64,000 bases of DNA, taken from positions 1 to 64,000 of the forward strand of contig NZ_JADEWZ010000022.1 in the NCBI RefSeq assembly GCF_015207425.1, read 5' to 3'. Origin of the DNA: Lusitaniella coriacea LEGE 07157. GTDB lineage: Bacteria; Cyanobacteriota; Cyanobacteriia; Cyanobacteriales; Spirulinaceae. The notes under the pieces are model-generated. The model worked only from the letters and a program-made list of their open reading frames with translations. It had not been told where the DNA came from and ran no database searches. This document shows, one piece after another, positions 308 to 36,800 of this stretch (its first letter is position 1; the number at the start of each line of letters is the position of its first letter). A program made the translations under genes and the position numbers.

Positions 308-1369
308 CTAGCGATTGGAAGAATAAAGGGGATTCCTCTCAGCTACTTTTTTACACCATGCTAAGAACGCAACATCTGGGTTTTGGAGCTTGAGACTGTT
401 CTTTGCTGTGGCTTTTCGCCAATCGTCTTCTAAAGCGTAGATATCATACCCAGGCGCTATTTGTTTTGCCTTCTCATAGGTTGTTGTTTTCAGTGAGAGA
501 AAATTGACTAATCGAGAAGGGGGAACTTCTACTTCGGTCACGACATTTTCTTTCACAAACACTCTTTGAGCATGAAGGAAGTACTCTTTATTTTTAGAGA
601 AAAAGTTTAACTTATAGTCAAGAAGTTGCTGTTTACTCGCAATTTTTCGGATATATCCAACAAAATCAGAATAGCGTTGAAGACTGCCAGAACGTTCGTG
701 AAGAGTTCTCAGTTTCCAAGTCCATCCTGATTTATTATTACCCGCTTGCTTGCGAACAAAACGGTACAGCCAGCGTTCGAGACCTCCTGTCAGCAAAAAA
801 TAGTCTTTGTGAATGGAAAGAATCAGTTTTCGTTCGCAAACTGCCTCAAAGAGCCATTCAGGAAGAATAACAACTACATTTTGAAGATACCCATCTGTAT
901 CTCGGTCAATCTCTACATATTCAATCCAATTGAACATAACTGTTTTCCCTTCAGGCGCTCTAATTGTTGTCGTAACAGTTGTGTTTTTGAGTCGAGCAAT
1001 ACTTTTCTCTAGCCTTCCATACTGAGCGCCTCCCACTTCTCGACGTGCTTCTTTGAGAAAAGCTCGTCGGCTGAAGCGTACTTTTCTGGAGATGGGTTCG
1101 CCGAAATCGAGTGCTTGGCGTATTTGGGAGAGAAGCCACATAATAAGATCCCAATCCCAGATGTTAGCAATTCCATAGGGTTCACCTCCACTAACGATGA
1201 CTTTTACTCCGTTGCTCGTGTAATTTATCGGTGTAAAACGGGGCTTTTTGGACAGACTGAGGAAAGGCACTTCCATCGTTTCTTGCGTGTCGCGAGTCAC
1301 GATATCAGTAAAAATGGCAGAGAACAGCTTGAGCTGTGCGTCGCTGGATGAAGGCTTCTTCTTGCCCAT
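308..1369 (-). CDS. repA: Replication initiator protein A (RPA family)
   Basis: This 353-residue protein carries the hallmarks of the plasmid replication initiator family RPA. An N-terminal stretch reads LFSAIFTDIVTRDTQETME, then PFLSLSKKPR, then a segment around residues 65-85 with YGIANIWDWDLIMWLLSQI. A later segment has the pattern YGRLEKSIARLKNTTVTTTI. The first two motifs match the family consensus closely. Such proteins bind the plasmid origin and start replication; that role is inferred from family membership. The gene is last in a parA-parB-repA operon on the minus strand and starts 21 bases after parB, an order like that of repABC-type replicons. A second, unrelated replication protein lies at 4297-7278, so this initiator may be only one of two on the replicon. 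Confidence 0.85.
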   Translation of the reverse strand: MGKKKPSSSDAQLKLFSAIFTDIVTRDTQETMEVPFLSLSKKPRFTPINYTSNGVKVIVSGGEPYGIANIWDWDLIMWLLSQIRQALDFGEPISRKVRFSRRAFLKEARREVGGAQYGRLEKSIARLKNTTVTTTIRAPEGKTVMFNWIEYVEIDRDTDGYLQNVVVILPEWLFEAVCERKLILSIHKDYFLLTGGLERWLYRFVRKQAGNNKSGWTWKLRTLHERSGSLQRYSDFVGYIRKIASKQQLLDYKLNFFSKNKEYFLHAQRVFVKENVVTEVEVPPSRLVNFLSLKTTTYEKAKQIAPGYDIYALEDDWRKATAKNSLKLQNPDVAFLAWCKKVAERNPLYSSNR

Positions 1370-1390
1370 TATTCACTCATACAGATGTTA

Positions 1391-2326
1391 TTACTCTTTT
1401 TCCAGCAAAGACTCTAAGTGAGTCAGCGCTTTTTCAATCTCTTTCCATTTTTTTGGGTTCTCCCACGCTTTGACTTTTTGAGCTTGGCGAAAGGCGCGAT
1501 CCAACCTTTTCTTCCAACCTTGCTGTCTGTTTTCCACCTCTGAGGAGCTTGAATTGCACTCCTTCACCCGTTTTCTAATCTCTTGCAGCGACAGTTTTTT
1601 GCTAATTGCCTCTTTCAAAAGAGCCTTTCTGCCCTTCTCTTCTTTCATTCGAGAGATCGCCTGGGCTTTGGTGTAAGCGATTTTACCTTCTCTTAGAGCC
1701 TGAAGCAGTTCCTCTGGCAAGTTGAGGAGAGGCAGCCGATTGGTAGCAAAAGACTGCCAAGATATTCCCAATCCCTGGAAAACCTTCTCGACCTGACTTA
1801 ATTCTTTGGTCATAACGTTATGACCAGAAGAGAGAGTACTCTTCTTTGAGTCGCTCTCGACTGAGCTAACGCTATGCCTGAGCCGATAGAGAAGGGGGGA
1901 TACCTCCTGAACCTCAACGTTGAGTTCGATTGCCAAGATGTGCAGAATCCCTTCGACCTCTTCAATGGGATTGAGGTCTTCGCGCTGAAGATTTTCGATG
2001 ACAGCAACTTGTAATGCTTCTTTGTCGTTGAAGTGGCGTACAACAACGGGAACCTCGCCAAAACCTGCCGCTTTAGCGGCTCGATAGCGACGTTCTCCAG
2101 CGACCAGTTCATATCCGCTGGAAGTCCGAGGATGAGGACGAACCAGTAAAGGTTCTAAAATACCGTGTTCTTTAACCGATTGAGTAAGCTGCTCTAGCTT
2201 TTCCGGGTCAAAGTATCGTCGTGGTTGTTGTTCGGGCAGCTCAATTAGTTCTAAGGGAATCAGCGCTCCCGGCTCCGTATCAGCACGAAAGGTAAATTCA
2301 ACAAGAGACCTTCTACTCTTACTCAT
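1391..2326 (-). CDS. parB: ParB-family partition protein
   Basis: The 311-residue protein has a ParB/Noc N-terminal domain at about residues 20-120. It includes EQQPRRYFDPEKLEQLTQSV, the CTP-binding GERRYRAAKAAG motif and AVIENLQREDLNPIEEVEG. A helix-turn-helix region follows around residues 190-250 (KIAYTKAQAISRMKEEKGRK) and the C terminus is basic and charged. Such proteins load on parS and work with ParA to segregate the plasmid. The start codon overlaps the end of parA by 8 bases, so the pair is translationally coupled. A perfect 20-bp palindrome, the likely parS core, lies inside this reading frame at 1807-1826, where it encodes part of a linker that reads SSGHNVMTKELS. Confidence 0.93.
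   Translation of the reverse strand: MSKSRRSLVEFTFRADTEPGALIPLELIELPEQQPRRYFDPEKLEQLTQSVKEHGILEPLLVRPHPRTSSGYELVAGERRYRAAKAAGFGEVPVVVRHFNDKEALQVAVIENLQREDLNPIEEVEGILHILAIELNVEVQEVSPLLYRLRHSVSSVESDSKKSTLSSGHNVMTKELSQVEKVFQGLGISWQSFATNRLPLLNLPEELLQALREGKIAYTKAQAISRMKEEKGRKALLKEAISKKLSLQEIRKRVKECNSSSSEVENRQQGWKKRLDRAFRQAQKVKAWENPKKWKEIEKALTHLESLLEKE
1807..1826. promoter_or_regulatory. Candidate parS site inside parB
   Basis: The sequence TGGTCATAACGTTATGACCA is a perfect 20-bp palindrome. Its 18-bp core GGTCATAACGTTATGACC occurs again, unchanged, upstream of parA at 3029-3046. Two identical perfect palindromes within a parAB locus are best explained as centromere-like ParB sites. The assignment is inferred from position and symmetry. 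Confidence 0.7.
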
Positions 2327-2975
2327 GAGCCAACTCTATAACTTCTTGAAAAAGTGCATCAAAATCCTCGCTGGCAGCTTGCGCCGCTGTCCCCGCCATA
2401 TCCCAGACCGTCGTTCCTTGTCCTGGGGCATCGCAGATGACTTGCCGATTGTAAATAACGCTTTGGAGAGAAGGAAAACCAAAATGTTTGAGCATCTCGA
2501 TCGAGTCGCGCAGCAGAAGAGTTCCCTTGACCGCTTGGTTGAGAAACAGAGCGGATTTAGGTTTGCCAGAGCGGATTTTCTGGGATTGCCGAATCATACG
2601 AATAATTCGGCTACTGCTGTGAGTATCTAAAGCCGAGGGCTTGCAGGGAACTAAAGCGACATCGACTCCGTAGAGGATTGCTTTTGTCACTTCACTCATT
2701 CCTCCCGGTCCATCAACAATGACTGCATCATACTTTTCTGGCAGTATTAACAGTACGTCTAAAAGGTCTTCGGGGTCATTAACAATTTTACAGGGAATTC
2801 CTAAGTCTTTGAGCCAATTCGAGCTGCTTTGCTGTGCATCCGCATCAATGACGATGGCCGATCCCTTTTGGCTGCACCAATAGGCAAAGTGAGCTGCCAG
2901 TGTCGTCTTCCCCACTCCCCCTTTTTGGTTGACAAAGCCGATAATAATGGATTTCGTACTTTCTAAAGAGGTCAT
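2319..2975 (-). CDS. parA: ParA-family partition ATPase
   Basis: This protein of 218 residues has the deviant Walker A motif KGGVGKTT at about residues 18-25, a Walker A' aspartate region (VIDADAQQSS) and a Walker B-like segment (DAVIVDGPGG). It lacks the N-terminal helix-turn-helix of large plasmid ParAs, so it is a short (type Ib-like) ParA. I chose the ATG at 2975 because AAGGAAG sits just before it. The frame extends to a TTG at 3014 but that start has no ribosome binding site and runs towards the palindrome at 3027-3048. The ATPase forms nucleoid-bound gradients that move ParB-parS complexes (family knowledge). First gene of the parA-parB-repA operon. Confidence 0.92.
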   Translation of the reverse strand: MTSLESTKSIIIGFVNQKGGVGKTTLAAHFAYWCSQKGSAIVIDADAQQSSSNWLKDLGIPCKIVNDPEDLLDVLLILPEKYDAVIVDGPGGMSEVTKAILYGVDVALVPCKPSALDTHSSSRIIRMIRQSQKIRSGKPKSALFLNQAVKGTLLLRDSIEMLKHFGFPSLQSVIYNRQVICDAPGQGTTVWDMAGTAAQAASEDFDALFQEVIELAHE

Positions 2976-3026
2976 TTTCTTCCTTTGTGCGAGTGGTAAG
3001 GTGTGATGCGACAACGCTTTTCAAGT

Positions 3027-3084: not shown

Positions 3085-4143
3085 CTATTCTTCAGTTGGC
3101 TGGCTTTCAATTTCTGCAACGACGGTATTGAGTTCCATCTCCAACTGCTCAACAGTGGGTAAACTTCCCTGAAGCTGTTCTGGTAGTTCATCGCCTAAAT
3201 GATACGTCGATACGCCGATCGGTTGACTCATTCCTTTGAGGGCATACTCCACAACCGTTTTTTTCTTCGACTGGCACAAAACGATTCCAATCGTAGGTTT
3301 ATCGTCAGGATGCCTTAAGAGGTCGTCCACCACATTGACGTAGAAGTTGATTTGACCGGAGTATTCCGGTTTAAACCCTGTCATTTTCAGCTCAATCACC
3401 ACAAAACAGCGTAATTTCAGGTGATAAAAGAGTAAATCGACGAAAAATTCATCTCCTTCCACCTCTAGGCGATACTGATTTCCCACGAAAGAGAACCCCA
3501 CACCTAACTCCAGGAGGAAGTCGCGCATATGCTTCATCAGCGCCTGCTCTAACTCCCGTTCGCGGACTTCCTCGCGAAAACCCAAAAATTCGAGATTATA
3601 GGGGCTTTTCAGAACTTGATGGGCTAAATCTGACTCGGCTTGCGGTAACGTTCGCTCGAAATTCGTTACGGCACTGCCCTGACGCTGGTAGAGGTTCGTT
3701 TCAATCTGCATTACCAGAATGTCACGACTCCAACCATTTTCCAGGGCTTGTCTTGCATACCAAAGCCGTTGTTCTGGAGATTTCAGCTTTTCGAGCAAGG
3801 CGATATTGTGTCGCCACGGTAATTGTCCAACGCTGCGTTGGATAATTTGTTCGTCGGGATACGCTTCAGCAAAAGCTCTCATATACAGCAGGCTCGTCCG
3901 CGAAAAACCCTTCATATCAGGAAAGGCTTTCTTCAAGTCTTTTGACAGTTTTTGAATAACTTTGGCTCCCCAACCTTGCTGCTTTTGTCGAGCGAGAATA
4001 TCTTTCCCAATTTGCCAATAGAGCAGAGTGAGTTCCTTGTTGACCGCCAGAGCTGCACGAACTTGAGCGCTACGAATGCGCTCTTTCAGGTCACTCAAGA
4101 AAGTATCGTAATCATCAGGAAGGGAAAATAACGTTTTGGACAC
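3085..4143 (-). CDS. YhcG/DUF1016 family PD-(D/E)XK nuclease
   Basis: At 352 residues this is a full-length YhcG-type protein. The N-terminal domain (about 10-150) has the family pattern AALAVNKELTLLYWQIGKDI, then a FSRTSLLYMRAFAEAYPD helix region and LPWRHNIALLEKL. The C-terminal nuclease core (about 215-330) shows FFVDLLFYHLKLRCFVVIEL with the catalytic-type D...E-x-K arrangement (D in VDLLF, ELK). Members are predicted DNA nucleases with unclear biological roles; some are placed near defence or mobile genes. The start is a GTG with a weak ribosome binding site. It is the first of three intact paralogues in this window (others at 7685-8800 and 49773-50786), and a relic lies at 50818-51040. 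The repeated acquisition suggests a mobile or plasmid-linked role. Confidence 0.88.
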   Translation of the reverse strand: MSKTLFSLPDDYDTFLSDLKERIRSAQVRAALAVNKELTLLYWQIGKDILARQKQQGWGAKVIQKLSKDLKKAFPDMKGFSRTSLLYMRAFAEAYPDEQIIQRSVGQLPWRHNIALLEKLKSPEQRLWYARQALENGWSRDILVMQIETNLYQRQGSAVTNFERTLPQAESDLAHQVLKSPYNLEFLGFREEVRERELEQALMKHMRDFLLELGVGFSFVGNQYRLEVEGDEFFVDLLFYHLKLRCFVVIELKMTGFKPEYSGQINFYVNVVDDLLRHPDDKPTIGIVLCQSKKKTVVEYALKGMSQPIGVSTYHLGDELPEQLQGSLPTVEQLEMELNTVVAEIESQPTEE

Positions 4144-4296: not shown

Positions 4297-7278
4297 TTAG
4301 CCCTCAGCAATACTCTCCTTATTATTACTGTGGGTGACTACAATTTCCCTTTGAGAAGCTGCTTGTGCTAACGCCTCATCCCGTTTGAACCACCGCTCAA
4401 AAATCTCCTCTCGCCCGTCTTGTGGCACCGCAGCACCATAGACTCGCTGCTGCTTTCCTCGTCCGCCTCGCTTATAAAGAAACGGCATCTTTAAGCCCAA
4501 CTTCGAGAGGAGCAATTGAGCAATAGCGATTGGCGAATCCTTCTGGTTAATAGTGACCCCTAAGATCGCCTTCACCTGCCACGCAATCCCCTTGATCTGC
4601 TCCCCCCATTGACCTAAGCTGTGGCTGGTAAACGTGGCATCTTCCTTCAAAAATTGCCCGATCTCCAACAGCTCTAAGGCATGAACCTGTGCCGAGAGCG
4701 CCTTGGCGTTAAAATCCGGCTTCCAAATCGCCCCCTCACCCTGTTCGAGTTGAGAGCGCAAAACCTTGACATCTCGCACCTTCAAAAAAAGATTGCCCAC
4801 CGTCAGGTAATAGTGCAACTGAAGGTTTCCATACCAACCTTGCCCGTCGCGCTCGACCACCTCCGGCGTAATCTCAACCGGATAGCGTCGAGCGAGAACC
4901 CCTTTGCGCTCCTCAAGGCGTTCCCCCTCAGTCTTACTGCGCTTCTCCTGTAACAGATCCAAACTGCGGTCGTCGGGATTAGGCGCAGCCGCCACCGTTT
5001 GGCAATACTGCTGGTAGTTTTCATCCTTAGTCATCTTTAGCTCCTCCTCAATTTCTTGTTGCTCCTCTTCTCTGCGCTCTTTGGCCGAGACAATCCGGTG
5101 TCCTTCCCCCTGGAGCGCATCCACAATGGTCTGACGATAGCAACTCATGGAGTGGTTAATTGCCACTGCTCGCTTTGCCCAGGTCTTGAGGGTGTCCGGT
5201 TGAAAGCCGAGGTCGATGTCCTCAAACTCCGACTCTCTGAGCAACGCAATATTGGCTCGACATAGCTTGTGCTGGCTCTTGAGTAGTGACTGAATTGAGG
5301 TGCTGCCATTACCAATGCGACTGCCGTTAAAGCCCTGCTCCCTCGCCCAGAGATGCCGGGGAATCGGCTCTCGAACTCGTGCCAGTGCCTGCCTGACTGA
5401 ATCGGCAGTCTGCACCCCCTGAGCAATGCCCCACACGCCGGTGAAATGACCTTGAATATCAATGCTAACTCCCGTTTCAATAGAAGGAGATGCCAGAACA
5501 ATGTCGTAGTGGGGGAGAATCTCATTGAGCTTGTCGATACAACCACACGCTGGATGACTCGGATCGCTCACGGTTTCGCTATCAATGCGGAGAATTTTCT
5601 TGTTGGGAAAAATCTTCTTGAGATAGCACTCAAGATTATAGGTTCCCCAGTTACTCTTCATCTTCTGAGCGCTACAACAAACAAGAGGAACGCCGCCATT
5701 GTGAAGATCGTTGACCAGTGCAGCGACTAGCGATCGCGGTTTGTTAGTCTCATAGGTATAAACATCCCATCCTTCCTCCGGTTTCCAGTCGTTGACAATG
5801 ACGTAGGGCTTCAGGGGAAAACCCGCCAGGGAGCGCACAAAATCAAGGGCAATATCGGATAAGTCAGCATCCGATAAAAAAACCTGACCTTCTTCACTAC
5901 TGAGGACGTTCTGAATCAAGGCTTCAAGGCTGCGCAGAATCGCAACTCGCTCCTTTTGGCAAGTAGAAGAATTGAGCAGATGCCAAAAAACCTGCTCTGC
6001 TTCATCAATAATCACCACCGCATCGTGCCACTCTTCAGGGTCAAACCGCGCTTGGGAGTGGGGGTGTAGCGAATCAACGCACAGCCCATATCCGAGTACC
6101 CCTTGGGTTTGAGAACTTCGCATCGCCGTCACATAATCAATACCAAATCGCTGGCACAACGCCTCTCCCAACTGAACGCGGTGGGTGAGAACCAGCACCT
6201 TTTGTCCGTTGCGAATTGCCTCTTGAGCCTGTTGGCAGAGCCACTCGGTTTTCCCCGTTCCCTTGGGAGACTTAAGAGCAATCAGCCGCGCTGAAGGGGG
6301 GAGGGGAGTATCCAGGTATCGTTGGTTGAGTTTGACATCGGGACGATAAGAGAGCCGCGCATACTGCTGTGCTTGCCAGCTCTCAAAGCGCAGGGCATTG
6401 CGCACGATCTGCTCCAGCACGTTCCGACCAAACGTTGCTACCACATCATCAATACCCTTTGCTGGAAGCTCCCAACGGGTAACGCGAAGAGCGCAGCCTT
6501 GATTTGCCAGCAACTTGCCCGTCTTGGTAATGGCTTTATTAACATTCTCAATCGTCTTGGGCTTCTCATCTTGGTCAAAGCAGAAATAAAACTTACGTTC
6601 TCCCTTCGCTAAAACATCCACCTGGGGGATAAGCCTTGGCAAGCCAACAACCTGACCGCCATCATCCCGGCGCTGCCGATAGCCGTTAAAAACCCCCGGA
6701 AGAGCAATAGCAGCAAACCCAGCACTCAGTAACGCCCCTGCCTTCTTTGCCCCCTCAGTGATAAGGATAGGGATTTCGGGGTTTCTTATAATCCATTCCC
6801 AGAAACTTACAGGCTGCTTTCGATCTTGCAGTCGCAGGGCGAGGGGAGACAGATACCGCTTTACGCCGTACCGCAGTGCGATCTTGTCCCAGATCGTTTG
6901 GGGAACGCGCAGGGCAAACAGTTCGGTGTCGGCTTGAGGAGGATGTTCGTATTTGATGACTTTTCCTTTGCCGCCGCGCCGGGGAAAATCGGGCTTAAAA
7001 CAGCCCCATTCAGCCTCCTCAAACGTCAGTAGGTCAACGCCGCTGCACCACCAACCCCCTTTCTCAACGTGCCTGTACTTTTTGAGCCACTTGTCGCGGA
7101 TGCGTCCGTCATTACGGCGTTCGGAGTGGGGGAGGGCGTAGATTAAAGACTCAATGGCAGCAAAACCATCAAGGGAGCGAACGTTTAGTTCGATCAGTTT
7201 TGGGTCAACGCCACTGTCGAGCCATTCTTGGCGATGGCGTGCTGATAACGAACTATTCTCTTTGTGCTGGTAATACAC
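4297..7278 (-). CDS. CyRepA1-type plasmid replication protein (primase-helicase-like)
   Basis: The 993-residue protein has an N-terminal primase-like region of the DUF3854 type. Residues about 160-300 include IPILITEGAKKAGALLSAGF, then ALPGVFNGYR and a TOPRIM-like FYFCFDQDEKP. A superfamily 2-like helicase module follows, with Walker A SPKGTGKTEW (about residues 344-353), LTHRVQLGEAL, Walker B VVIIDEAEQ and a helicase motif region VLASPSIETGVSIDIQGHF. This arrangement is the signature of cyanobacterial plasmid replication proteins of the CyRepA1 family, which act at the plasmid origin to unwind or prime DNA (inferred). The GTG start has AGAGGA eight bases upstream. It is the second replication protein of the window. 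The upstream region holds a convergent small-RNA candidate that may control its expression. Confidence 0.88.
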   Translation of the reverse strand: MYYQHKENSSLSARHRQEWLDSGVDPKLIELNVRSLDGFAAIESLIYALPHSERRNDGRIRDKWLKKYRHVEKGGWWCSGVDLLTFEEAEWGCFKPDFPRRGGKGKVIKYEHPPQADTELFALRVPQTIWDKIALRYGVKRYLSPLALRLQDRKQPVSFWEWIIRNPEIPILITEGAKKAGALLSAGFAAIALPGVFNGYRQRRDDGGQVVGLPRLIPQVDVLAKGERKFYFCFDQDEKPKTIENVNKAITKTGKLLANQGCALRVTRWELPAKGIDDVVATFGRNVLEQIVRNALRFESWQAQQYARLSYRPDVKLNQRYLDTPLPPSARLIALKSPKGTGKTEWLCQQAQEAIRNGQKVLVLTHRVQLGEALCQRFGIDYVTAMRSSQTQGVLGYGLCVDSLHPHSQARFDPEEWHDAVVIIDEAEQVFWHLLNSSTCQKERVAILRSLEALIQNVLSSEEGQVFLSDADLSDIALDFVRSLAGFPLKPYVIVNDWKPEEGWDVYTYETNKPRSLVAALVNDLHNGGVPLVCCSAQKMKSNWGTYNLECYLKKIFPNKKILRIDSETVSDPSHPACGCIDKLNEILPHYDIVLASPSIETGVSIDIQGHFTGVWGIAQGVQTADSVRQALARVREPIPRHLWAREQGFNGSRIGNGSTSIQSLLKSQHKLCRANIALLRESEFEDIDLGFQPDTLKTWAKRAVAINHSMSCYRQTIVDALQGEGHRIVSAKERREEEQQEIEEELKMTKDENYQQYCQTVAAAPNPDDRSLDLLQEKRSKTEGERLEERKGVLARRYPVEITPEVVERDGQGWYGNLQLHYYLTVGNLFLKVRDVKVLRSQLEQGEGAIWKPDFNAKALSAQVHALELLEIGQFLKEDATFTSHSLGQWGEQIKGIAWQVKAILGVTINQKDSPIAIAQLLLSKLGLKMPFLYKRGGRGKQQRVYGAAVPQDGREEIFERWFKRDEALAQAASQREIVVTHSNNKESIAEG

Positions 7279-7339
7279 CTGATATGTCCTCTCGTACTGT
7301 ATGGGGAATCAGTAGGAAACGAGAGAGTGACACTCAGGC

Positions 7340-7368
7340 TTGAGAAATGGAGATGTCCGCGTTAAAAT
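7340..7368 (+). promoter_or_regulatory. Sigma-70-type promoter, plus strand
   Basis: TTGAGA at 7340-7345 and TAAAAT at 7363-7368 are separated by exactly 17 bases. It points away from the CyRepA1 gene and towards the terminator at 7521-7554, so it would produce an RNA of roughly 180 nucleotides. Confidence 0.5.
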
Positions 7369-7374
7369 ACAAAA

Positions 7375-7554
7375 ACAAGTCGGACAATCAAATCCGATAT
7401 CTATTAGCACATGATGTAACAGAAGTTTTCTGAGGACCCTTGTTCGTCATGTTGGTGCGGTGTTTCTACCCGTTCCTTTTATTCGGTTAAAAAATAACGA
7501 TGGCCAAAATCGCCAGAGAGCAGCTTAGAAACTCGAACTTCTAAGCTGTTTTTT
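7375..7554 (+). ncRNA. Candidate countertranscribed RNA upstream of CyRepA1
   Basis: A good plus-strand promoter (7340-7368) and a good plus-strand terminator (7521-7554) bracket about 180 bases with no convincing ORF. The RNA would be antisense to any CyRepA1 leader that starts upstream, the usual layout of plasmid copy-control RNAs. A weaker minus-strand promoter-like pair (TTGATT, 16 bases, TATTTT) lies near 7366-7393. Function is inferred from layout only. Confidence 0.4.
7521..7554 (+). terminator. Rho-independent terminator
   Basis: A perfect 10-bp stem (CAGCTTAGAA at 7521-7530 with its complement at 7539-7548, 8-base loop) is followed by six T residues at 7549-7554. It terminates plus-strand transcription and would end the candidate antisense RNA. 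Confidence 0.75.
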
Positions 7555-7684
7555 GGTGGTTCTACCTCCTGTTATCGACGATACGTTACAAAATCTTATC
7601 CGCAATTCTACCCCTCCCTGCCGGATCGTTTGGAAAGATCCCCCGGAGTGGGTAACGAAAGTTTACAGGCAACACGACTTTTCA

Positions 7685-8800
7685 TTATTCTTCAGGGCGA
7701 TTTTCAATTCTTTTGCGCGTTTGCTCCAATTCCTGAGCCAACAGCTTTTCATCGGGTAAAGTCATTTGATACTCAGCAGCCATTACCTTATTCGGTAAGC
7801 CTGCTAAAGCGTAATGAGCGACGGCCTCATCTTTTCTATTGCACAGAATTAGCCCAACCGGGGGATTCTCATCAGGATACATCCAGTGTTCTCGCGCATA
7901 GTTGAGATAGAGGTGCATTTGACCGACATCGGCATGGGTGAATTCTCCAAGTTTTAAGTCGATAATGATCAAACACCGCAGGCGGCGATGGAAAAACAAC
8001 AGATCGACGCGAAACCATTGGTCGCCAATCCGCAAGCGACGCTGACGGCCAAGAAAGGCAAAGTCTCGCCCCAACTCCAATAGAAAACTCTCAATATGCT
8101 GGATGAGTGCTTCCTCAAGGTCGCTCTCGGAATACTCGTCCTTGAGCGCGAGAAACTCCAATACAAACGGGTCTTTGATCTCTTCTTCAGGAGCAATCGC
8201 CTCACCATCTCTCCCTTTCTCCAACATCGCTGCCTTGTTGCGAGATAACAACGTTCGCTCGTAGAACTGAGTTGCCATCTGCCGTCGCAGTTGCCGAACT
8301 GACCATCCCCCTTGTAAGGCTTCAGCTTCATAGAAGGAGCGAGCCTCATTGGATTTGACCGAAAGCAATTGAACGTAATGGGACCAGGGTAGGGGGAATT
8401 TTCGGTCGAGGTCGGTCATCTCAGATTCCGCAGACACTGTCTGCGGAATTGACCAAAGTAAGTAAAAACGCCTCATCTGTTCGAGATTACGCTGAGAGAA
8501 ACCTCGACCAAACCGAGCTGTCAGGTCTTGAGACAGTCGCTCGACGAGTTGCTTGCCATATTTAGCCCTGCTTTCTCCTTTTTGCTCGGATTCGACAATT
8601 TGCCGTCCAATTTCCCAATAGGTTGCAGTCATAATGGAGTTGATGGAGCGAGCTGCCCTGCGGCGAGATGTTTCCATCAGCTCGACAACGGTTTTGAGCA
8701 TAATGAGGTAAGCCTCTTCAGTCTCGATTTTTTGGGGAAGGTTGTCTGGGGAATTTTTCGTCACACGCTGCTCCACATATTTGCACCTGTAGCGCCACAC
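7685..8800 (-). CDS. YhcG/DUF1016 family PD-(D/E)XK nuclease (second copy)
   Basis: A 371-residue member of the same family as the gene at 3085-4143, but a clearly different subgroup. The N-terminal domain shows RRRAARSINSIMTATYWEIG, FGRGFSQRNLEQMRRFYL and FPLPWSHYVQLLSV. The nuclease core (about 250-330) has WFRVDLLFFHRRLRCLIIID followed by LKLGEF, so the usual E-x-K is D-x-K here. The frame opens with a GTG at 8800, but an in-frame GTG at 8764 preceded by GGAG gives an N terminus nearer the family norm and is probably the true start. The gene lies between the CyRepA1 leader and a short integrase on the opposite strand. A role in DNA defence or plasmid maintenance is only inferred. Confidence 0.85.
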   Translation of the reverse strand: MWRYRCKYVEQRVTKNSPDNLPQKIETEEAYLIMLKTVVELMETSRRRAARSINSIMTATYWEIGRQIVESEQKGESRAKYGKQLVERLSQDLTARFGRGFSQRNLEQMRRFYLLWSIPQTVSAESEMTDLDRKFPLPWSHYVQLLSVKSNEARSFYEAEALQGGWSVRQLRRQMATQFYERTLLSRNKAAMLEKGRDGEAIAPEEEIKDPFVLEFLALKDEYSESDLEEALIQHIESFLLELGRDFAFLGRQRRLRIGDQWFRVDLLFFHRRLRCLIIIDLKLGEFTHADVGQMHLYLNYAREHWMYPDENPPVGLILCNRKDEAVAHYALAGLPNKVMAAEYQMTLPDEKLLAQELEQTRKRIENRPEE

Positions 8801-8891
8801 TATAGCGCAGTAGCGACAAGGAGCAATGTAATCCTCAATTTCATCGGCTCTCAGTACGCGGTAGACTAAAAGATTGTTGCCAGGGTTGCCC

Positions 8892-9560
8892 GTGAAAATT
8901 GACCGCCACGGTCAGGCAAAGATCTTAACGCTTGAAGAACTCGAACGACTCTTTAACAACGGCTTAACCAACAGTCGAGATCGCGCTCTGTTTGCCATCT
9001 GCCTTTATACTGCTTGCCGGATTCGGGAATGCTGCACGTTGCGAACGACGGACGTTTACGAGCGGAAAGGGGACGTGTTGCCCGAAATTATCTTTCGCAA
9101 AGGCAACACCAAAGGCAAGCTGGCCACTCGTGCCATTCCCGTGATTGAGGAGCTGCGCCGAATGCTGCTCGATTACTACCCTTCCCCTCGCACTTGGTTT
9201 CTCTTCCCTGGTCTCGCGCAAACTGGACACATCCACCCCGACTCGGCAGCAAGAATTTTTCGTCGTGCCTGTCAGCGCGTTAATATAATTGGCGCAAGCA
9301 CCCACAGCTTCAGGCGAACTGCATTGACTCAATTGAGTAACGAGGGGATTCCCCTGCGCGTAATACAAGAGGTATCGGGGCATCGTAATCTAGGAGAACT
9401 ACAGAAATACCTAGAAGTCAAACCCGAACAAGTGCGCGGTGCGGTTTCCGCTCTCTCGATGCTCTCGACTGCCGGAAAATCAAGATATGACGACACCCTG
9501 ACAGGGGAAGAAGAAAAGAGTGAGCAAGCGCGATCGCGCTCCTCGGATATTTCTCCTTAA
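8892..9560 (+). CDS. Short tyrosine recombinase/integrase (catalytic domain only)
   Basis: The protein of about 222 residues is a phage-integrase catalytic domain without the N-terminal SAM-like DNA-binding domain of XerC/D. The catalytic set is visible: arginine in TACRIRECCTL, histidine and arginine in THSFRRTALTQL, the second histidine in EVSGHRNLGEL and the tyrosine in LQKYLEV. I prefer the GTG at 8892, giving a start MKIDRHGQAKILT that fits related short integrases; the frame opens at a TTG at 8874. The C-terminal tail is charged, and its end carries a GCGATCGCGC HIP1 site. Such short integrases are common on cyanobacterial plasmids and may resolve multimers or move gene cassettes (inferred). 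Confidence 0.82.
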   Translation: MKIDRHGQAKILTLEELERLFNNGLTNSRDRALFAICLYTACRIRECCTLRTTDVYERKGDVLPEIIFRKGNTKGKLATRAIPVIEELRRMLLDYYPSPRTWFLFPGLAQTGHIHPDSAARIFRRACQRVNIIGASTHSFRRTALTQLSNEGIPLRVIQEVSGHRNLGELQKYLEVKPEQVRGAVSALSMLSTAGKSRYDDTLTGEEEKSEQARSRSSDISP

Positions 9561-10444: not shown

Positions 10445-10495
<51 letters not shown>

Positions 10496-30834: not shown

Positions 30835-33800
30835 TTAATTTAATGGATAGGCATGAACTTTTCCACTAGGATATACCTTAACAAATACTTTTGTTGCTGG
30901 CACAGTAGTTCCATCAGGCATATGAACAATTGAGGAATTATTCGCTGGCAAGTCGAAAATATCCTGATTTCCTTTTCCTAAACCTCGAGCTTTATCTACT
31001 GCAAAGTCGATATCTTCTTTACTGCGAAACTGTCCTTGGGGAATTCCTTCCTTTTTGGCACGAGCTGGACCCTCAGTCCAGTTCAAACCGTGTTTTCTAG
31101 AACCTAGTAACGCTCTTTCTGCGAAATAATCTGCATTATGAACCAGAATCCCCAACTCCGAAACAAAATAAGTCGGAAATCCTTCAACCTTAAAATTGTA
31201 AACCTCAAACTTACCTTCACGTTTCTCAATCCTATCAACATCAACAAACGTCTCCTCATCCGTTTGCAACAAATCCCCAACAACTAAATCCTTCGCCTCA
31301 ACCCACCCCTTATCCGGAGTCCAGAAAGGATGTTCCCCTGTTGTCGAAATGACCTCCCCATCAACATAGAGATCGTATAACTCCGTTGCCTCTCGCACAA
31401 AAGTATCCAAAACTTGCCGTTTTTCGATACCCCCAGGAGTCGTCGGGTCATCCGCAATCACCCAATCCCCAACCCGAATATCCTCGATATTCTTCATCCC
31501 CTCCGTTGTGAGAACCTTTGTCCCCGCAACGAAGCACTTCGGGCCGCCTCCTGCTGCCACAGTCCGAGTTGATTGAGTCGCTAAAACATCATCCGGCCCC
31601 GGCGTACTCCCCTTAACCTTCCGCGCTGCGCCAATGCCCCGCTTAATCCCGCCAATCATCCCCGCTAACGGCACGTAAGACAATAAATTCCAGGAATCCC
31701 GAATTTCAAACCGACCGTTATCCTGGTAACTCTCGTACAAATTCTTAGTTGCCTTGAGCGCGCCGTAAATATCAAACCCAAGGTCGGCACCGACCCCTGC
31801 CGTCGCGACCCACTTCAGCGGACCAACAGCCGTTGCCGCAACCGACGGTAACTTCATTCCCAACAGAAAAGAGACTCCAATCCCCGTTACAGTCCCCGCA
31901 CCCCACAGCGCTCCATGTGTGGGTTCAACCTTATTCCCGCTGTAGCTCTCGTACACATCAGTCAAATACCCCCCCGATACCCCATTGGCAAAACCCGCAC
32001 CCCAATCTCCAAACATTTGCAGAATTTCATCCGAACTGGCTCCAGAAAGTACGCCTCCGGTAATATAACCCGCACCGACACCGACGCTACCAATCGTAGA
32101 CAGCGAAGCTATCACATTCAGCGTTGCCATCACATCGCCGATGGTGGAGGAGTAGCCCGTCGGGTCAGTAAACCGCACCGGGTTGGCATGGGCATACTGG
32201 TAATCGTGCTGACTCATCGGGTCGCTTAAAAATCCGCTGAAGGGGTCTTTCGAGATAAACCGCCCCAAAGTCGGGTCGTAATATCTTGCCCGCAGGTAAT
32301 CCAACCCCGTAGAACTATCTCGCTGTTCCCCGGCAAATTGGAAAGAATTGCCAAAAGTCCCTGTTTGGTCTAGCAACACCCCAAAGGCATCATAGGTATA
32401 GCGGTCAGTCACCAAACCCACATTATCCGTAATCGCCCGCGTACTTCCCAATCCATCCGTGTGATAGAAGCCTTCGCGACCATTGCGAGTCGCACTAACC
32501 AATCCCAGACCGTGGGTGTAATTAGCCGTAATTTGGTCGTTGGCATCGTACTCCATCAAGACTTCGGGCAAACTTCCAACGGATGTCGTCAAATAGTTAG
32601 TTTGCACGCCATCAGCAACAGTAGCGACCCGATTGCCCAAGGCATCGTAAACAAATTGAGTCTGAGAAGTCCCTGCTGCTGTTGAATTGGTAACTCCCAC
32701 CAAACGGTTTTCCCCGTCATTAATCCAGTCGTAAGTTATGGTTTGGGAGCCATCAGACCGTTGAGTGATTGAGCCGTTGTCATCGTAGCCAAATGCCGTT
32801 GTTTGGCTACCTTGAGTGAGTTGTTGGAGGCGGTTGTTGTCGTCATAGGTATAAGTTGCTAATCCCGATGCCGAGTCGTTGCGAGTCAGGCGATTTCCGA
32901 CTAAATCATAGGTGTAATCAATCGTTCGATTTCCCGTAGCACCGCCAACCATATTTTCTTGAGTCAGGCGATTAAGAGCATCGTAAGTGTAATCGACAGT
33001 GCGACCGCCGTATTCCTCAACTTTAGTTCGGTTGCCAACGCCATCTAGGGTATATTTAAAGTCGTTGAAAATAGTTCCCGTGACATTCCTCGTCGTTAGC
33101 TGTGTCAAGCGGTTGCGAGTATCGTACAGGCGAGATTCAACAGAACCATTAGCTAATTGGGTTTGAGATAGGTTGCCGACAGCATTGTAATCGTAATCCG
33201 CTAGAATTCGGTTGCCCTCCTTAACGGTATCTAAGCGGTTCAGCGGGTCGTAACCGTAGGTTATTGCATTAGCGGGAGTGGTTAGGGAGGTGAGATTATT
33301 TAGCAGGTCGTAACCGTAGCCAACCGTTTTTTGGTCGGGTGTTGTTATGGTTTCTAACCGGTCGTAATTGTCGTAGGTATACTGCATTACCCCACGACTG
33401 TCTGTTACCGTTGACAGTCCCAAAGTTACTGGGTCGTAGGTATAGGAAACTGGAGAGATTCTGGGGTCTGTAAATGTTTTATTCTCTAAGCGTCCGTAGG
33501 AATCGTAAGTGTAATTAATGGTATCTCCATTAAAGTCTGTCGCAGCGGTAACTTGTCCAAATGAGTTGTAATCGGTACGATTCCTTTGACCTAGCGGTAA
33601 GACTGTTTCTGTGGGACGGTTAAATGCGTCGTATTCAAAGGATGTCACGTTTTGATTGGCATCCTCAATCTGCTTCAAGCGAAATAAATTGTCGTAGGTA
33701 TATTGGGTCAAAGTCTCTTCCAATTGACCGTTAGCTGCTAACTGCTTGACTTGTTCGATTTGAACGAGTTGGCTGAGGTTGTCGTAGGTGTATTTAGTTG

Positions 33801-36800
33801 GATTGAGATTTTCATCCGTAGTGCTGGTGAGGCGACTGAACTGGTCGTAAGCCATCGAAACCGTATCGCCGTTGTGGAAAGTTGTTTCCACTTTCTGTCC
33901 GTATTCGTCGTATTTGAAGTGGGTGGATTGACCTAATGCATCAGTGACCCGAATCAAGTTGTGACGTTGGTTGTATTCAAACTCTGTACGTTCATTTAGA
34001 GCATTGATAACGGCTTTGACCTGACCGTAAGCATCGTATTCGTAGGTGGTGGTTTGATTCAGTTCGTTCGTTTCTGTTTTCAGCCGACCTAATTCGTCAT
34101 AGGTCAGCTTGAAGCGAGAATCGTCAAAGAAAATGATTTCCTGAACTCGTGCGTTGTTGTCGTAAATATACCGCGTCTTTCGGTTTCGATGGTCGGTAAC
34201 CGTCTCAATTTGACCGCCTTTCGTATAGGTGTAGGTTGTCGGCTGATTGAATGCATTGATAACTTGTGTTATTTGACCGATGTCATTGTAAAGGTATTGG
34301 GTTTTATTACCCAGGATGTCGGTTTGCGATTTAATCCGACCCCCGTCAGAATATTCCGTCTTGTTCCTGGGGTTATCTGCCCAGTCATTTGGAGTTAAAT
34401 CCGGCAAAACAACCTCGGTTAACCGATTTAAATCATCGTAGACGTAGCGTGTCTCCAGTCCAGTTGGAGAGATTTCTGCTATGAGGTTGTTGGCCGCATC
34501 GTACTTCTGAATAACTTTTGGGTTATCACTGGAGATGTTGGGTGTATTGTCGGGTAAAGTAATTTCGTCAATGCGAGTTACGGTTGTATCGTTGTTTTGT
34601 CCGGCTGTTTGCTGTAAGTCGTAATTGTAGGAAGTAACATTGCCAAATACATCCGTCATCGACTTCACTCGTCCCAAAGCATCGTAGATGGTGGATTGGC
34701 TATTCCCTTGAGACGTTCTGCTAGCAATGATTCGACCCTCTTTATCGTAGTCGTATTCCATTGCTAAGGTGTGAGTTTGACCGTTAAGGTTAAATGTTGT
34801 GGTGGCAACTTCTATATTGCCGTTGGGATTGTAATCAAATCCAACTTCATTACCACGACTGTCAATCGTTCGTTTGATATTTCCTTGCGTGTCGTAGTCG
34901 TAGGTTGTAACTTGACCGTCTGGTGCGGTTTGGGTCAGTAGTTGACCTTGCGGATTGTAGGTATAGGTTGTCCTTAGACCGTTGGTATCGATGCTTTCAA
35001 CTAAGTTCCCGCGACTGTCATATTTTGCCGTGGTTTTTAGACCTGTTGGAGAGACGATAGAGGTCACCTGATTGCGGCCGTTGTAAGTCATGCGGGTGAT
35101 GCTACCGCTTTCGTCTTGGATGGTGAGAAGATTTTGGCGCTCGTCGTAGGTATATTGAGTGGTAACCCCATCTGCGTCGGTTTCAGTCAGTAGATTGTTG
35201 TTGTCATCGTAAGTTCTATCAATTCGCCACCCCTCTGGACCAACTTCTGTTAAAACATTCCCCCGACTGTCGTAGACGTAGGTGGTGGGATTCCCATAAA
35301 CATCCCGCACCGTTTGCACCGAGTTATCCAGGTCGTAGGTCAACTCGACCGCTTCCCCATTCACATCCAGCAATCGTGCCAAGCGTCCGGTGGTTTCGTC
35401 GTACTCGGTGCGGATGCCATTGCGTCCCAAGGGGTCTTCAATGCGGGTCAGGTAGTGGGGACGAGTGGATTCCTCGTAGAAATATTCCGTGCGGTTCTCC
35501 TCTCGGTCGATGACAGCGATTAAATCTCCATTGGCATCGTATTCGTACTCGATGCGCTCTCCCGCTGGGTCGATGACCGCACTAATCCGTCCCTGCGCGT
35601 CTCGCTCGAACTTCACTTCCTTACCCGCACTGCTGACAATTCCGCCTTCGGAATAGGTGAGGGTATTGCCGTTGAGGTCGGTGATTGTGTTCAAATCCCC
35701 GCTCGTGGCATCGATTTCGTACTCAATCCCCTCCTTCGTGGTCAGGGTATAGGCTCCCCCGAAGAACGGGTGTTGGGGATTGTAGGGCAACCCATTGGGA
35801 GAGCGATACTCCCCTGTCGTTTGGTCGCGCAGCAGCGAATCGATTTCGACGCTCAAGGTCATTCCCGACCCGTCATCGGCAACAAACTGCGGTTGATAGA
35901 ACCAAGCACTTTCCGGCCAAGGCGCGCCCATATTTAACACTTCTTCCACTTCTGGATGGAGTTTCGCTTGGAAGGTGAAGGAGGTGCGTTTTCCACCGGG
36001 AAGGGTGATGTAGACCTTCGACCCGTCCTTAAATGCCGGATACTCGCCCAAAATCTTCTCTTCTGGAGTTTGCGGCGGCAAACTGGTCTTCAAATTGGTA
36101 TCCCGGAACTCCAAGCGCCAGCCATACCCAAAGTTATCCTCTTGATTGGCATAAAGGGAGTCGTAGGTGCGGGTCACGGTGATGGGAATTCCGGATACCG
36201 GAACTTCTAAATCCGTGAAGGAGAGTTGGAAATTGCCCAGTTTCAATTCTCCCGTGACATCCACCTGCTCTTCAACAAAGGAGGACGCGCCGGTGCTGTC
36301 GGTAGCCGTGAGGCGCAGGGTATAGGTGTCGTTGGGTAAGAGTGTGGGGTCAAAGGTTCCCAACACCCCATCGGTGACGGGTTCGGTTCCTTCAAAGACC
36401 GTGACCCATTCTCCTCCCCCAACCGGTTGCGCTTCAAGTTTGTAGGAGACGGGATTGCCATTATTGTCGGCAACGGTACCGCGAATTTCTACGGGTTCTG
36501 TGACTTCCCCATTCAGACCGCTCAAATCCAAATTGACAACCAAATCCGTGGTAACGGAGAGGTCGATGAAGTCCAGGTTCAAGGTTTCTTGGGTGGTATT
36601 CCCGGCGGTATCTGTAGCGATGGCTATTGCGCTGAGGGTTGTCCCTACTGCACCCACGGGAACCGTCGCCACGCCATTGGCATCGGTGGCAACCGCAGTG
36701 CCATCAATCAGAAATTGCACGCTATCCACGGCGATATTATCGGTGGCAACGGCGCGAATTGAGACGGTGGATTGGGTACTGATATCCACCTGATAGCCGC

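What the first reader, a model, noticed from the sequence alone, without database searches (positions are those of the whole stretch)
7340..7554. Candidate countertranscribed RNA for CyRepA1
A 17-base-spaced promoter and a perfect terminator bracket about 180 bases that face the CyRepA1 leader. The layout is that of plasmid copy-control RNAs and, to my knowledge, is not described for this family.
Basis: partly seen in the sequence, partly recalled or inferred. Interest (0 to 1): 0.55.

Follow-up and report, generated by a model that had tools for sequence, protein, structure and literature searches.

The report
Antisense RNA gene opposing plasmid rep
Opposite the leader of a cyanobacterial plasmid's replication gene there is a well-formed, partly conserved gene for a small antisense RNA that probably limits plasmid copy number, as has already been reported for a related plasmid, so it is a new example of a known kind of control.

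Summary
TTGAGA-17-TAAAAT lies at 7340-7368(+) and a 10-bp hairpin plus six T at 7521-7554(+). In my scan it is the only promoter (10/12 or better) followed within 60-260 nt by a terminator (-12 kcal/mol or better) in 64 kb; 1000 shuffles of the intergenic region gave no such pair at -14. The gene it faces passes NCBI's CyRepA1 model. Window terminator and pSYSA hairpin lie at nearly the same distance from rep. The one close relative found (L217, 76% identity) keeps the antisense promoter and a hairpin there. Strong antisense terminators are enriched in plasmid-type CyRepA1 leaders (15 of 58; shuffles mean 3.4, max 9), not clearly in chromosomal-type ones (4 of 67; mean 2.8). Best reading: a cis-encoded countertranscript restraining CyRepA1-driven replication. 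Transcription, pairing and copy control are inferred; no sense promoter was found. New member of a known kind.

The parts
4297..7278 (-). CyRepA1-family replication protein gene, 993 aa, GTG start
   Evidence: NCBIfam NF042913 486.9 bits, cut-off 200; DUF3854 159.7 bits; tblastn matches in 220 plasmid records
7340..7368 (+). antisense promoter TTGAGA-17-TAAAAT
   Evidence: L217 has TTGAGG-18-TAGAAT with the -10 ending 2 nt from the matching place; 24 of 2000 shuffles of its leader do as well
7354..7386 (.). inverted repeat TGTCCG (7354-7359) / CGGACA (7381-7386) around the -10 and start point; L217 has CGACCA/TGGTCG there
   Evidence: meaning inferred
7375..7554 (+). predicted countertranscript, about 180 nt (start point inferred from the -10)
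7379..7398 (+). predicted stem-loop 1; the - strand here is a weak terminator-like hairpin in the rep leader (7397-7380 followed by CTTGTTTTTG)
7409..7452 (+). predicted long stem-loop 2
   Evidence: the RNA before the terminator is not clearly better folded than shuffles
7463..7484 (+). 22-nt block TTTCTACCCGTTCCNTTTATTC, identical in L217 but for one base
7508..7561 (+). terminator hairpin, core 7521-7548, T-run 7549-7554
   Evidence: L217 has an 11-bp hairpin at the aligned place (starting 18 nt nearer to rep); 3 of 2000 shuffles give one within 25 nt
7279..7600 (-). CyRepA1 leader opposite the RNA (upstream limit not known)
   Evidence: inference from gene position; no sense start found

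Best explanation
7340-7554(+) is a gene for a cis-encoded antisense (countertranscribed) RNA of about 180 nt. It starts about 97 nt upstream of the CyRepA1 start codon, reads away from rep and ends at an intrinsic terminator. It would pair with the leader of the transcript that runs into CyRepA1 and lower the amount of productive leader (replication primer in the pSYSA model, or rep mRNA), so that initiation falls as copy number, and with it the RNA, rises. Shown here: the sequence elements, their conservation in L217 and the enrichment of antisense terminators in plasmid-type CyRepA1 leaders. Inferred: transcription, pairing and the copy-control role.
For: Only promoter-terminator pair of its quality in 64 kb, 0 of 1000 shuffles. 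Closest relative L217 (76% aa) keeps the antisense promoter as the only >=9/12 site in 420 nt, -10 ending at 149 against 147 (24 of 2000 shuffles), and an 11-bp hairpin at the terminator's aligned place (3 of 2000). pSYSA asRNA1 starts 199 nt upstream of the same rep codon (32,481 from PMC9978351, codon) and has a hairpin with T-run at 304-333; the window's is at 298-328, those of two Stanieria plasmids at 305-341. Plasmid-type leaders (window and pSYSA counted in): antisense terminators <=-14 in 14 of 58, shuffles mean 1.8, max 5 in 12 runs, sense 1 of 58; chromosomal-type 2 of 67, shuffles mean 1.3, max 2 in 6 runs. First version of that test: <=-12 antisense 11 of 37, sense 0 of 37, shuffles mean 2.65; chromosomal-type 5 of 85, shuffles 2.05. 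12 of the 21 plasmid-type loci with an antisense hairpin <=-9 have one ending 327-389 nt upstream (read off). In pSYSA the overlapping RNAs are tied to copy number by experiment (PMC9978351).
Against: No expression data. No promoter-like site on - in 6800-8200, so overlap is assumed. L217's hairpin has a poor T-run and fails my terminator rule. 37 of 58 plasmid-type leaders show no antisense hairpin at -9; at that cut-off the excess is modest (21 against shuffles mean 10.8, max 17). L058, sister of the window in the tree, has only a weak one near rep (61-107). Of the 24 plasmid-type loci with later locus ids, 6 have antisense but 3 have sense terminators <=-12. The promoter rule finds no >=9/12 antisense site for pSYSA, where the start is mapped, and promoter-terminator pairs in only 6 of the 27 loci (two of these the same plasmid). 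No sequence homology to asRNA1: nhmmer finds only the window among 134 leaders, L217 not yet among them. No ssr7036-like ORF. RNA before the terminator not clearly structured.
Confidence: 0.68

Rival explanations
1. The RNA acts by transcription attenuation of rep, as in pT181 or pIP501 (recalled): pairing with the nascent leader favours a short terminator hairpin (- strand 7397-7380, then CTTGTTTTTG) before rep. The segment TGTCCGA can pair either with TCGGA upstream (terminator-like) or with CGGACA downstream, so the two folds exclude each other.
For: Sense terminator-like site listed; downstream pairing; L217 has the same three-segment layout with other letters (TGGTCG, CGACCA, TGGTCG).
Against: The sense hairpin is weak (-7.4 kcal/mol). 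In L217 no T-run follows its counterpart (sequence). Only two sequences, and 6-bp repeats are common. The downstream partner lies beyond the T-run, which does not suit a classical antiterminator.
Confidence: 0.15
2. The hairpin and the 22-nt block are DNA elements of the origin (Rep-binding or unwinding structure) and the promoter match is incidental.
For: The leader is also the likely origin region (pSYSA fragment 32,057-35,622 replicates, PMC9978351); the 22-nt block is the best conserved stretch of the leader and has no known role.
Against: In plasmid-type leaders the excess of terminators is on the antisense strand; the promoter is conserved in L217; the hairpin arms differ between window and L217.
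Confidence: 0.08
3. An independent small RNA or small-protein gene unrelated to rep.
For: Self-contained unit; the best frame-to-frame match between window and L217 leaders exceeds that of 60 shuffles.
Against: That match is the 22-nt block, in a frame without ATG, GTG or TTG in the window; the only ORF of 20 aa or more wholly between 7375 and 7554 on + is 22 aa; same place relative to rep as asRNA1.
Confidence: 0.05
4. Chance promoter and relic hairpin, not transcribed.
For: A promoter of 10/12 arises in 29 of 1000 shuffles.
Against: Pair 0 of 1000; conservation in L217.
Confidence: 0.04

Closest known systems
pSYSA asRNA1 / ssr7036 / slr7037 (CyRepA1), Synechocystis PCC 6803 (PMC9978351)
   Same: CyRepA1-family Rep; antisense unit of about 150-180 nt starting upstream of rep and reading away; hairpin with T-run at nearly the same distance from rep.
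   Different: No detectable sequence homology between the RNAs; no 64-aa ssr7036-like ORF; start nearer to rep (about 154 against 199 nt from the same codon); transcription not shown here.
ColE1 RNA I / RNA II (Rfam RF00106)
   Same: Small antisense RNA over an origin-proximal leader; the model proposed for pSYSA.
   Different: No Rfam match in the window at the gathering cut-off, and RF00106 not among the four matches up to E 5 in 7200-7700; a Rep protein is present; Rop not sought.
pT181 / pIP501 attenuation ctRNAs (recalled, not compared here)
   Same: Antisense RNA facing a rep leader with a terminator-like hairpin before rep.
   Different: Other Rep families (recalled); attenuator weak and without a T-run in L217.
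Antisense sRNAs at CyRepX1/CyRepX2 on pSYSX (PMC10899382, passages)
   Same: Abundant antisense RNA at a cyanobacterial plasmid rep gene.
   Different: They start inside the rep ORF (about 25 nt after the annotated start codon); other Rep families.

Membership tests
CyRepA1 replication proteins (NF042913) | score above the curated cut-off | tested here: met
   486.9 bits against 200
CyRepA1 replication proteins (NF042913) | groups with plasmid rather than chromosomal homologues | tested here: met
   N-terminal tree of 134 rows: window with L058 on the side holding pSYSA (30 of 125 inner branches open, root for drawing only); same in the 221-row tree
pSYSA asRNA1-type countertranscript | antisense unit upstream of rep, reading away from rep | tested here: met
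   promoter 7340-7368, terminator 7521-7554; as sequence only
pSYSA asRNA1-type countertranscript | sequence homology to asRNA1 | tested here: not met
   nhmmer of the window leader against 134 antisense leaders, pSYSA included, finds only itself
pSYSA asRNA1-type countertranscript | sense RNA carrying an ssr7036-like ORF | tested here: not met
   longest sense ORF in 500 nt of window leader 33 aa; ssr7036 matches only L057 and L136 of 228 leaders, so it is not a family-wide trait
pSYSA asRNA1-type countertranscript | stable stem-loops besides the terminator | tested here: inconclusive
   z before the terminator: window -1.7, L217 -1.3, pSYSA itself -1.0
pSYSA asRNA1-type countertranscript | abundant transcript; RNase E cleavage; effect on copy number | not testable with these tools
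   needs RNA and cells
ColE1 RNA I | matches RF00106 | tested here: not met
pT181/pIP501 attenuation control | leader terminator switched by the antisense RNA | tested here: inconclusive
   weak sense terminator in the window, no T-run after its counterpart in L217

The most novel reading that the evidence does not exclude
Countertranscript control is a common trait of plasmid-borne CyRepA1 replicons across cyanobacteria, kept in position (about 300-390 nt upstream of rep) while its sequence turns over, and absent from the chromosomal CyRepA1 clade; in the window lineage it works together with a leader of mutually exclusive hairpins whose letters change together.
Probability: 0.35. Interest if true: 0.5.

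Novelty: new member of a known kind. Interest (0 to 1): 0.38.

Why it matters
CyRepA1 replicons are widespread in cyanobacteria (46 of 59 relatives searched hold a homologue) and are being made into vectors, but in the papers I saw copy control by antisense RNA is described for pSYSA only. A second antisense unit at the same place without sequence likeness, and enrichment of antisense terminators in plasmid-type but not chromosomal-type leaders, suggest the pSYSA mechanism is more general and give defined targets for setting copy number and compatibility.

Tried and rejected
Close relatives: genome contigs with the single protein gave none, with an 11-protein alignment 271 relatives of which the best 80 were kept, best 57%; plasmids at DNA level none; phage records 15 partial matches at 24-28% in the ten rows shown; 388 genomes of the class, none but the window's own at E 1e-300; a second viral scan returned only the contig of L217. 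So conservation rests on one close relative.

Rfam: nothing at gathering cut-offs; four sub-threshold hits on the terminator hairpin, which I take as chance. Homology of the window leader to others: none by nhmmer, blastn only matches with E above 1. A shared GCTTAGA/TCTARGC terminator core in window, L124 and L127 may be convergence; I do not build on it. Repeats: no three-copy family in 700 nt upstream of rep in window or L217; 9 of 58 plasmid-type and 10 of 67 chromosomal-type leaders have one. Without a split by clade antisense terminators show no excess over sense (29 against 30 of 118 loci at -7); I split by tree after seeing that. The first split test used hand-made lists: 37 plasmid-type and 85 chromosomal-type of 134 loci, 10 redundant or short rows and L027 and L030 left out. 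One search repeats it with a tree split chosen to separate 43 loci that I had labelled (43 of 43 separated) and with dereplication: 228 of 236 loci gave an N-terminal match, 221 had enough upstream DNA, 58 plasmid-type and 67 chromosomal-type remained. 'Chromosomal-type' is a tree side; only some of its rows lie on contigs long enough to be chromosomes. One search examined 27 of the 134 loci. The hairpin alignment holds five loci chosen because they show the hairpin; L141 of the same group, which diverges, was left out.

Full report
What is there. On the + strand, TTGAGA (7340-7345), 17 nt, TAAAAT (7363-7368) is followed by a 10-bp hairpin and T6 ending at 7554, 174 nt from the inferred start to the hairpin end by my finder. 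No other promoter of 10/12 or better is followed within 60-260 nt by a terminator of -12 kcal/mol or better on either strand of the 64 kb (cut-offs chosen after seeing the element). The unit lies between the 993-aa rep gene (4297-7278, -) and a DUF1016/YhcG nuclease gene (7685-8800, -). The rep protein passes NCBI's CyRepA1 model. The contig is 88,808 bp; its ends show no exact overlap, so that it is a circular plasmid is not shown.

Prior art. Kaltenbrunner et al. 2023 (PMC9978351; abstract and outline, sections) named CyRepA1 from pSYSA and mapped asRNA1: one start at 32,481 on the reverse strand, 153 nt, complementary to the small gene ssr7036, upstream of slr7037; sense start 32,177. Extra ssr7036 RNA raised copy number; RNase E cuts both RNAs; the ssr7036-slr7037 fragment replicates in two cyanobacteria. 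Among the papers they list, those whose text I saw to treat antisense RNA at a CyRepA1 locus are this one and PMC10899382 (passages). PMC10079941 (passages) and PMC11782128 (passages) did not treat it in what I saw; PMC9964548 and PMC12307069 were seen as listings only. So the idea is known for one CyRepA1 plasmid; I saw no report of this locus or of a family-wide survey.

Position. Measured from the codon of rep residue 20 (window 7221), the window hairpin spans 298-328, pSYSA's 304-333, two Stanieria plasmids' 305-341, Synechocystis B12's 321-356. The antisense start is at about 154 in the window (inferred) and 199 in pSYSA (mapped).

Close relative. L217 (IMGVR_UViG_3300027607_000101; rep 76% identical) has a leader that aligns only in patches. 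Kept are CGAGAGAG before the promoter, the antisense promoter (TTGAGG-18-TAGAAT), a 22-nt block (7463-7484 in the window) and a hairpin where the terminator is (AAGACCAGCTT/AAGCTGGTCTT). In 2000 shuffles of the L217 leader, a promoter with its -10 within 10 nt of the window's place came up 24 times and a perfect 10-bp hairpin within 25 nt of the window's 3 times. L217's T-run is poor and it fails my terminator rule. A hairpin before the rep start and an inverted repeat around the antisense -10 occur in both with different letters; two sequences are too few to prove covariation.

Survey. A tree of rep N-termini (134 rows, 127 columns, many weak forks) separates a side with known plasmids, pSYSA and the window from a side that holds the loci on megabase contigs that I checked. 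In the final test, antisense terminators of -12 or better occur in 15 of 58 plasmid-type leaders (shuffles mean 3.4, max 9 in 12 runs; sense 3 of 58, shuffles 1.4) and 4 of 67 chromosomal-type ones (shuffles mean 2.8, max 5 in 6 runs; sense 7 of 67, shuffles 2.3). At -14: 14 of 58 (mean 1.8, max 5) and 2 of 67 (mean 1.3, max 2). At -9 the excess is modest: 21 of 58 (mean 10.8, max 17) and 8 of 67 (mean 7.2, max 10). Among the 24 plasmid-type loci with ids from L137 on, 6 antisense and 3 sense at -12. 37 of 58 plasmid-type leaders show none even at -9. In five loci of one group (L124, L125, L127, L178, L214) the antisense hairpin aligns; of 13 predicted pairs 11 are kept in all five, one with a change on both sides, and two are broken in one or two sequences. 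pAQ1 has an antisense hairpin with T-run at 142-175 (-12.7), but the only antisense promoter-like site of 9/12 lies farther from rep (469-497), so it would not drive it.

Mechanism. The likeliest reading is a cis-encoded countertranscript that restrains CyRepA1-driven initiation by pairing with its leader. Whether through a primer, attenuation or translation is open; an attenuation layout is visible but weak. The missing piece is a sense promoter: none was found by consensus in 6800-8200; cyanobacterial promoters often lack a good -35 (recalled). The consensus rule also misses the mapped asRNA1 promoter of pSYSA, so it is a blunt tool both ways. The RNA differs from asRNA1 in sequence and in lacking the small ORF, which itself matches only two Synechocystis loci among 228 leaders.

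Noticed in passing
window 308-3014: A second replication initiator (RPA, PF10134) with ParB and ParA genes lies beside the CyRepA1 gene: two Rep systems on one contig.
   Followed up: no
window 3085-4143 and 7685-8800: Two DUF1016/YhcG PDDEXK nuclease genes bracket the rep gene, and a phage-type integrase gene (8874-9560) lies beyond.
   Followed up: no
L119 (G286), G274 and other loci on long contigs: CyRepA1 homologues on megabase contigs, also in single-contig genomes of 1.4-1.5 Mb; those placed in the tree (L119 among them) fall on a separate side. Their role is unclear.
   Followed up: partly
L058, L137, L124, L125, L178, L214, L134: Direct repeats of 21-22 nt spacing (iteron-like) upstream of rep in relatives; not in the window or L217. 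Repeat families occur about as often in chromosomal-type leaders.
   Followed up: partly
window 7463-7484: 22-nt block conserved with L217 in an otherwise diverged leader; one viral contig holds it; role unknown.
   Followed up: partly
window 7289-7325: Hairpin arms CTCTCGT (7289-7295) and ACGAGAG (7319-7325) just before the rep start; L217 has a different hairpin at about the same place.
   Followed up: partly
L241 with L128 (pAQ1): Antisense hairpin with T-run in the leader of the pAQ1 rep, a widely used plasmid; expression could be read from public RNA-seq.
   Followed up: partly
window 10450-10494: Tandem repeat of 7 nt (GGCAGTG).
   Followed up: no
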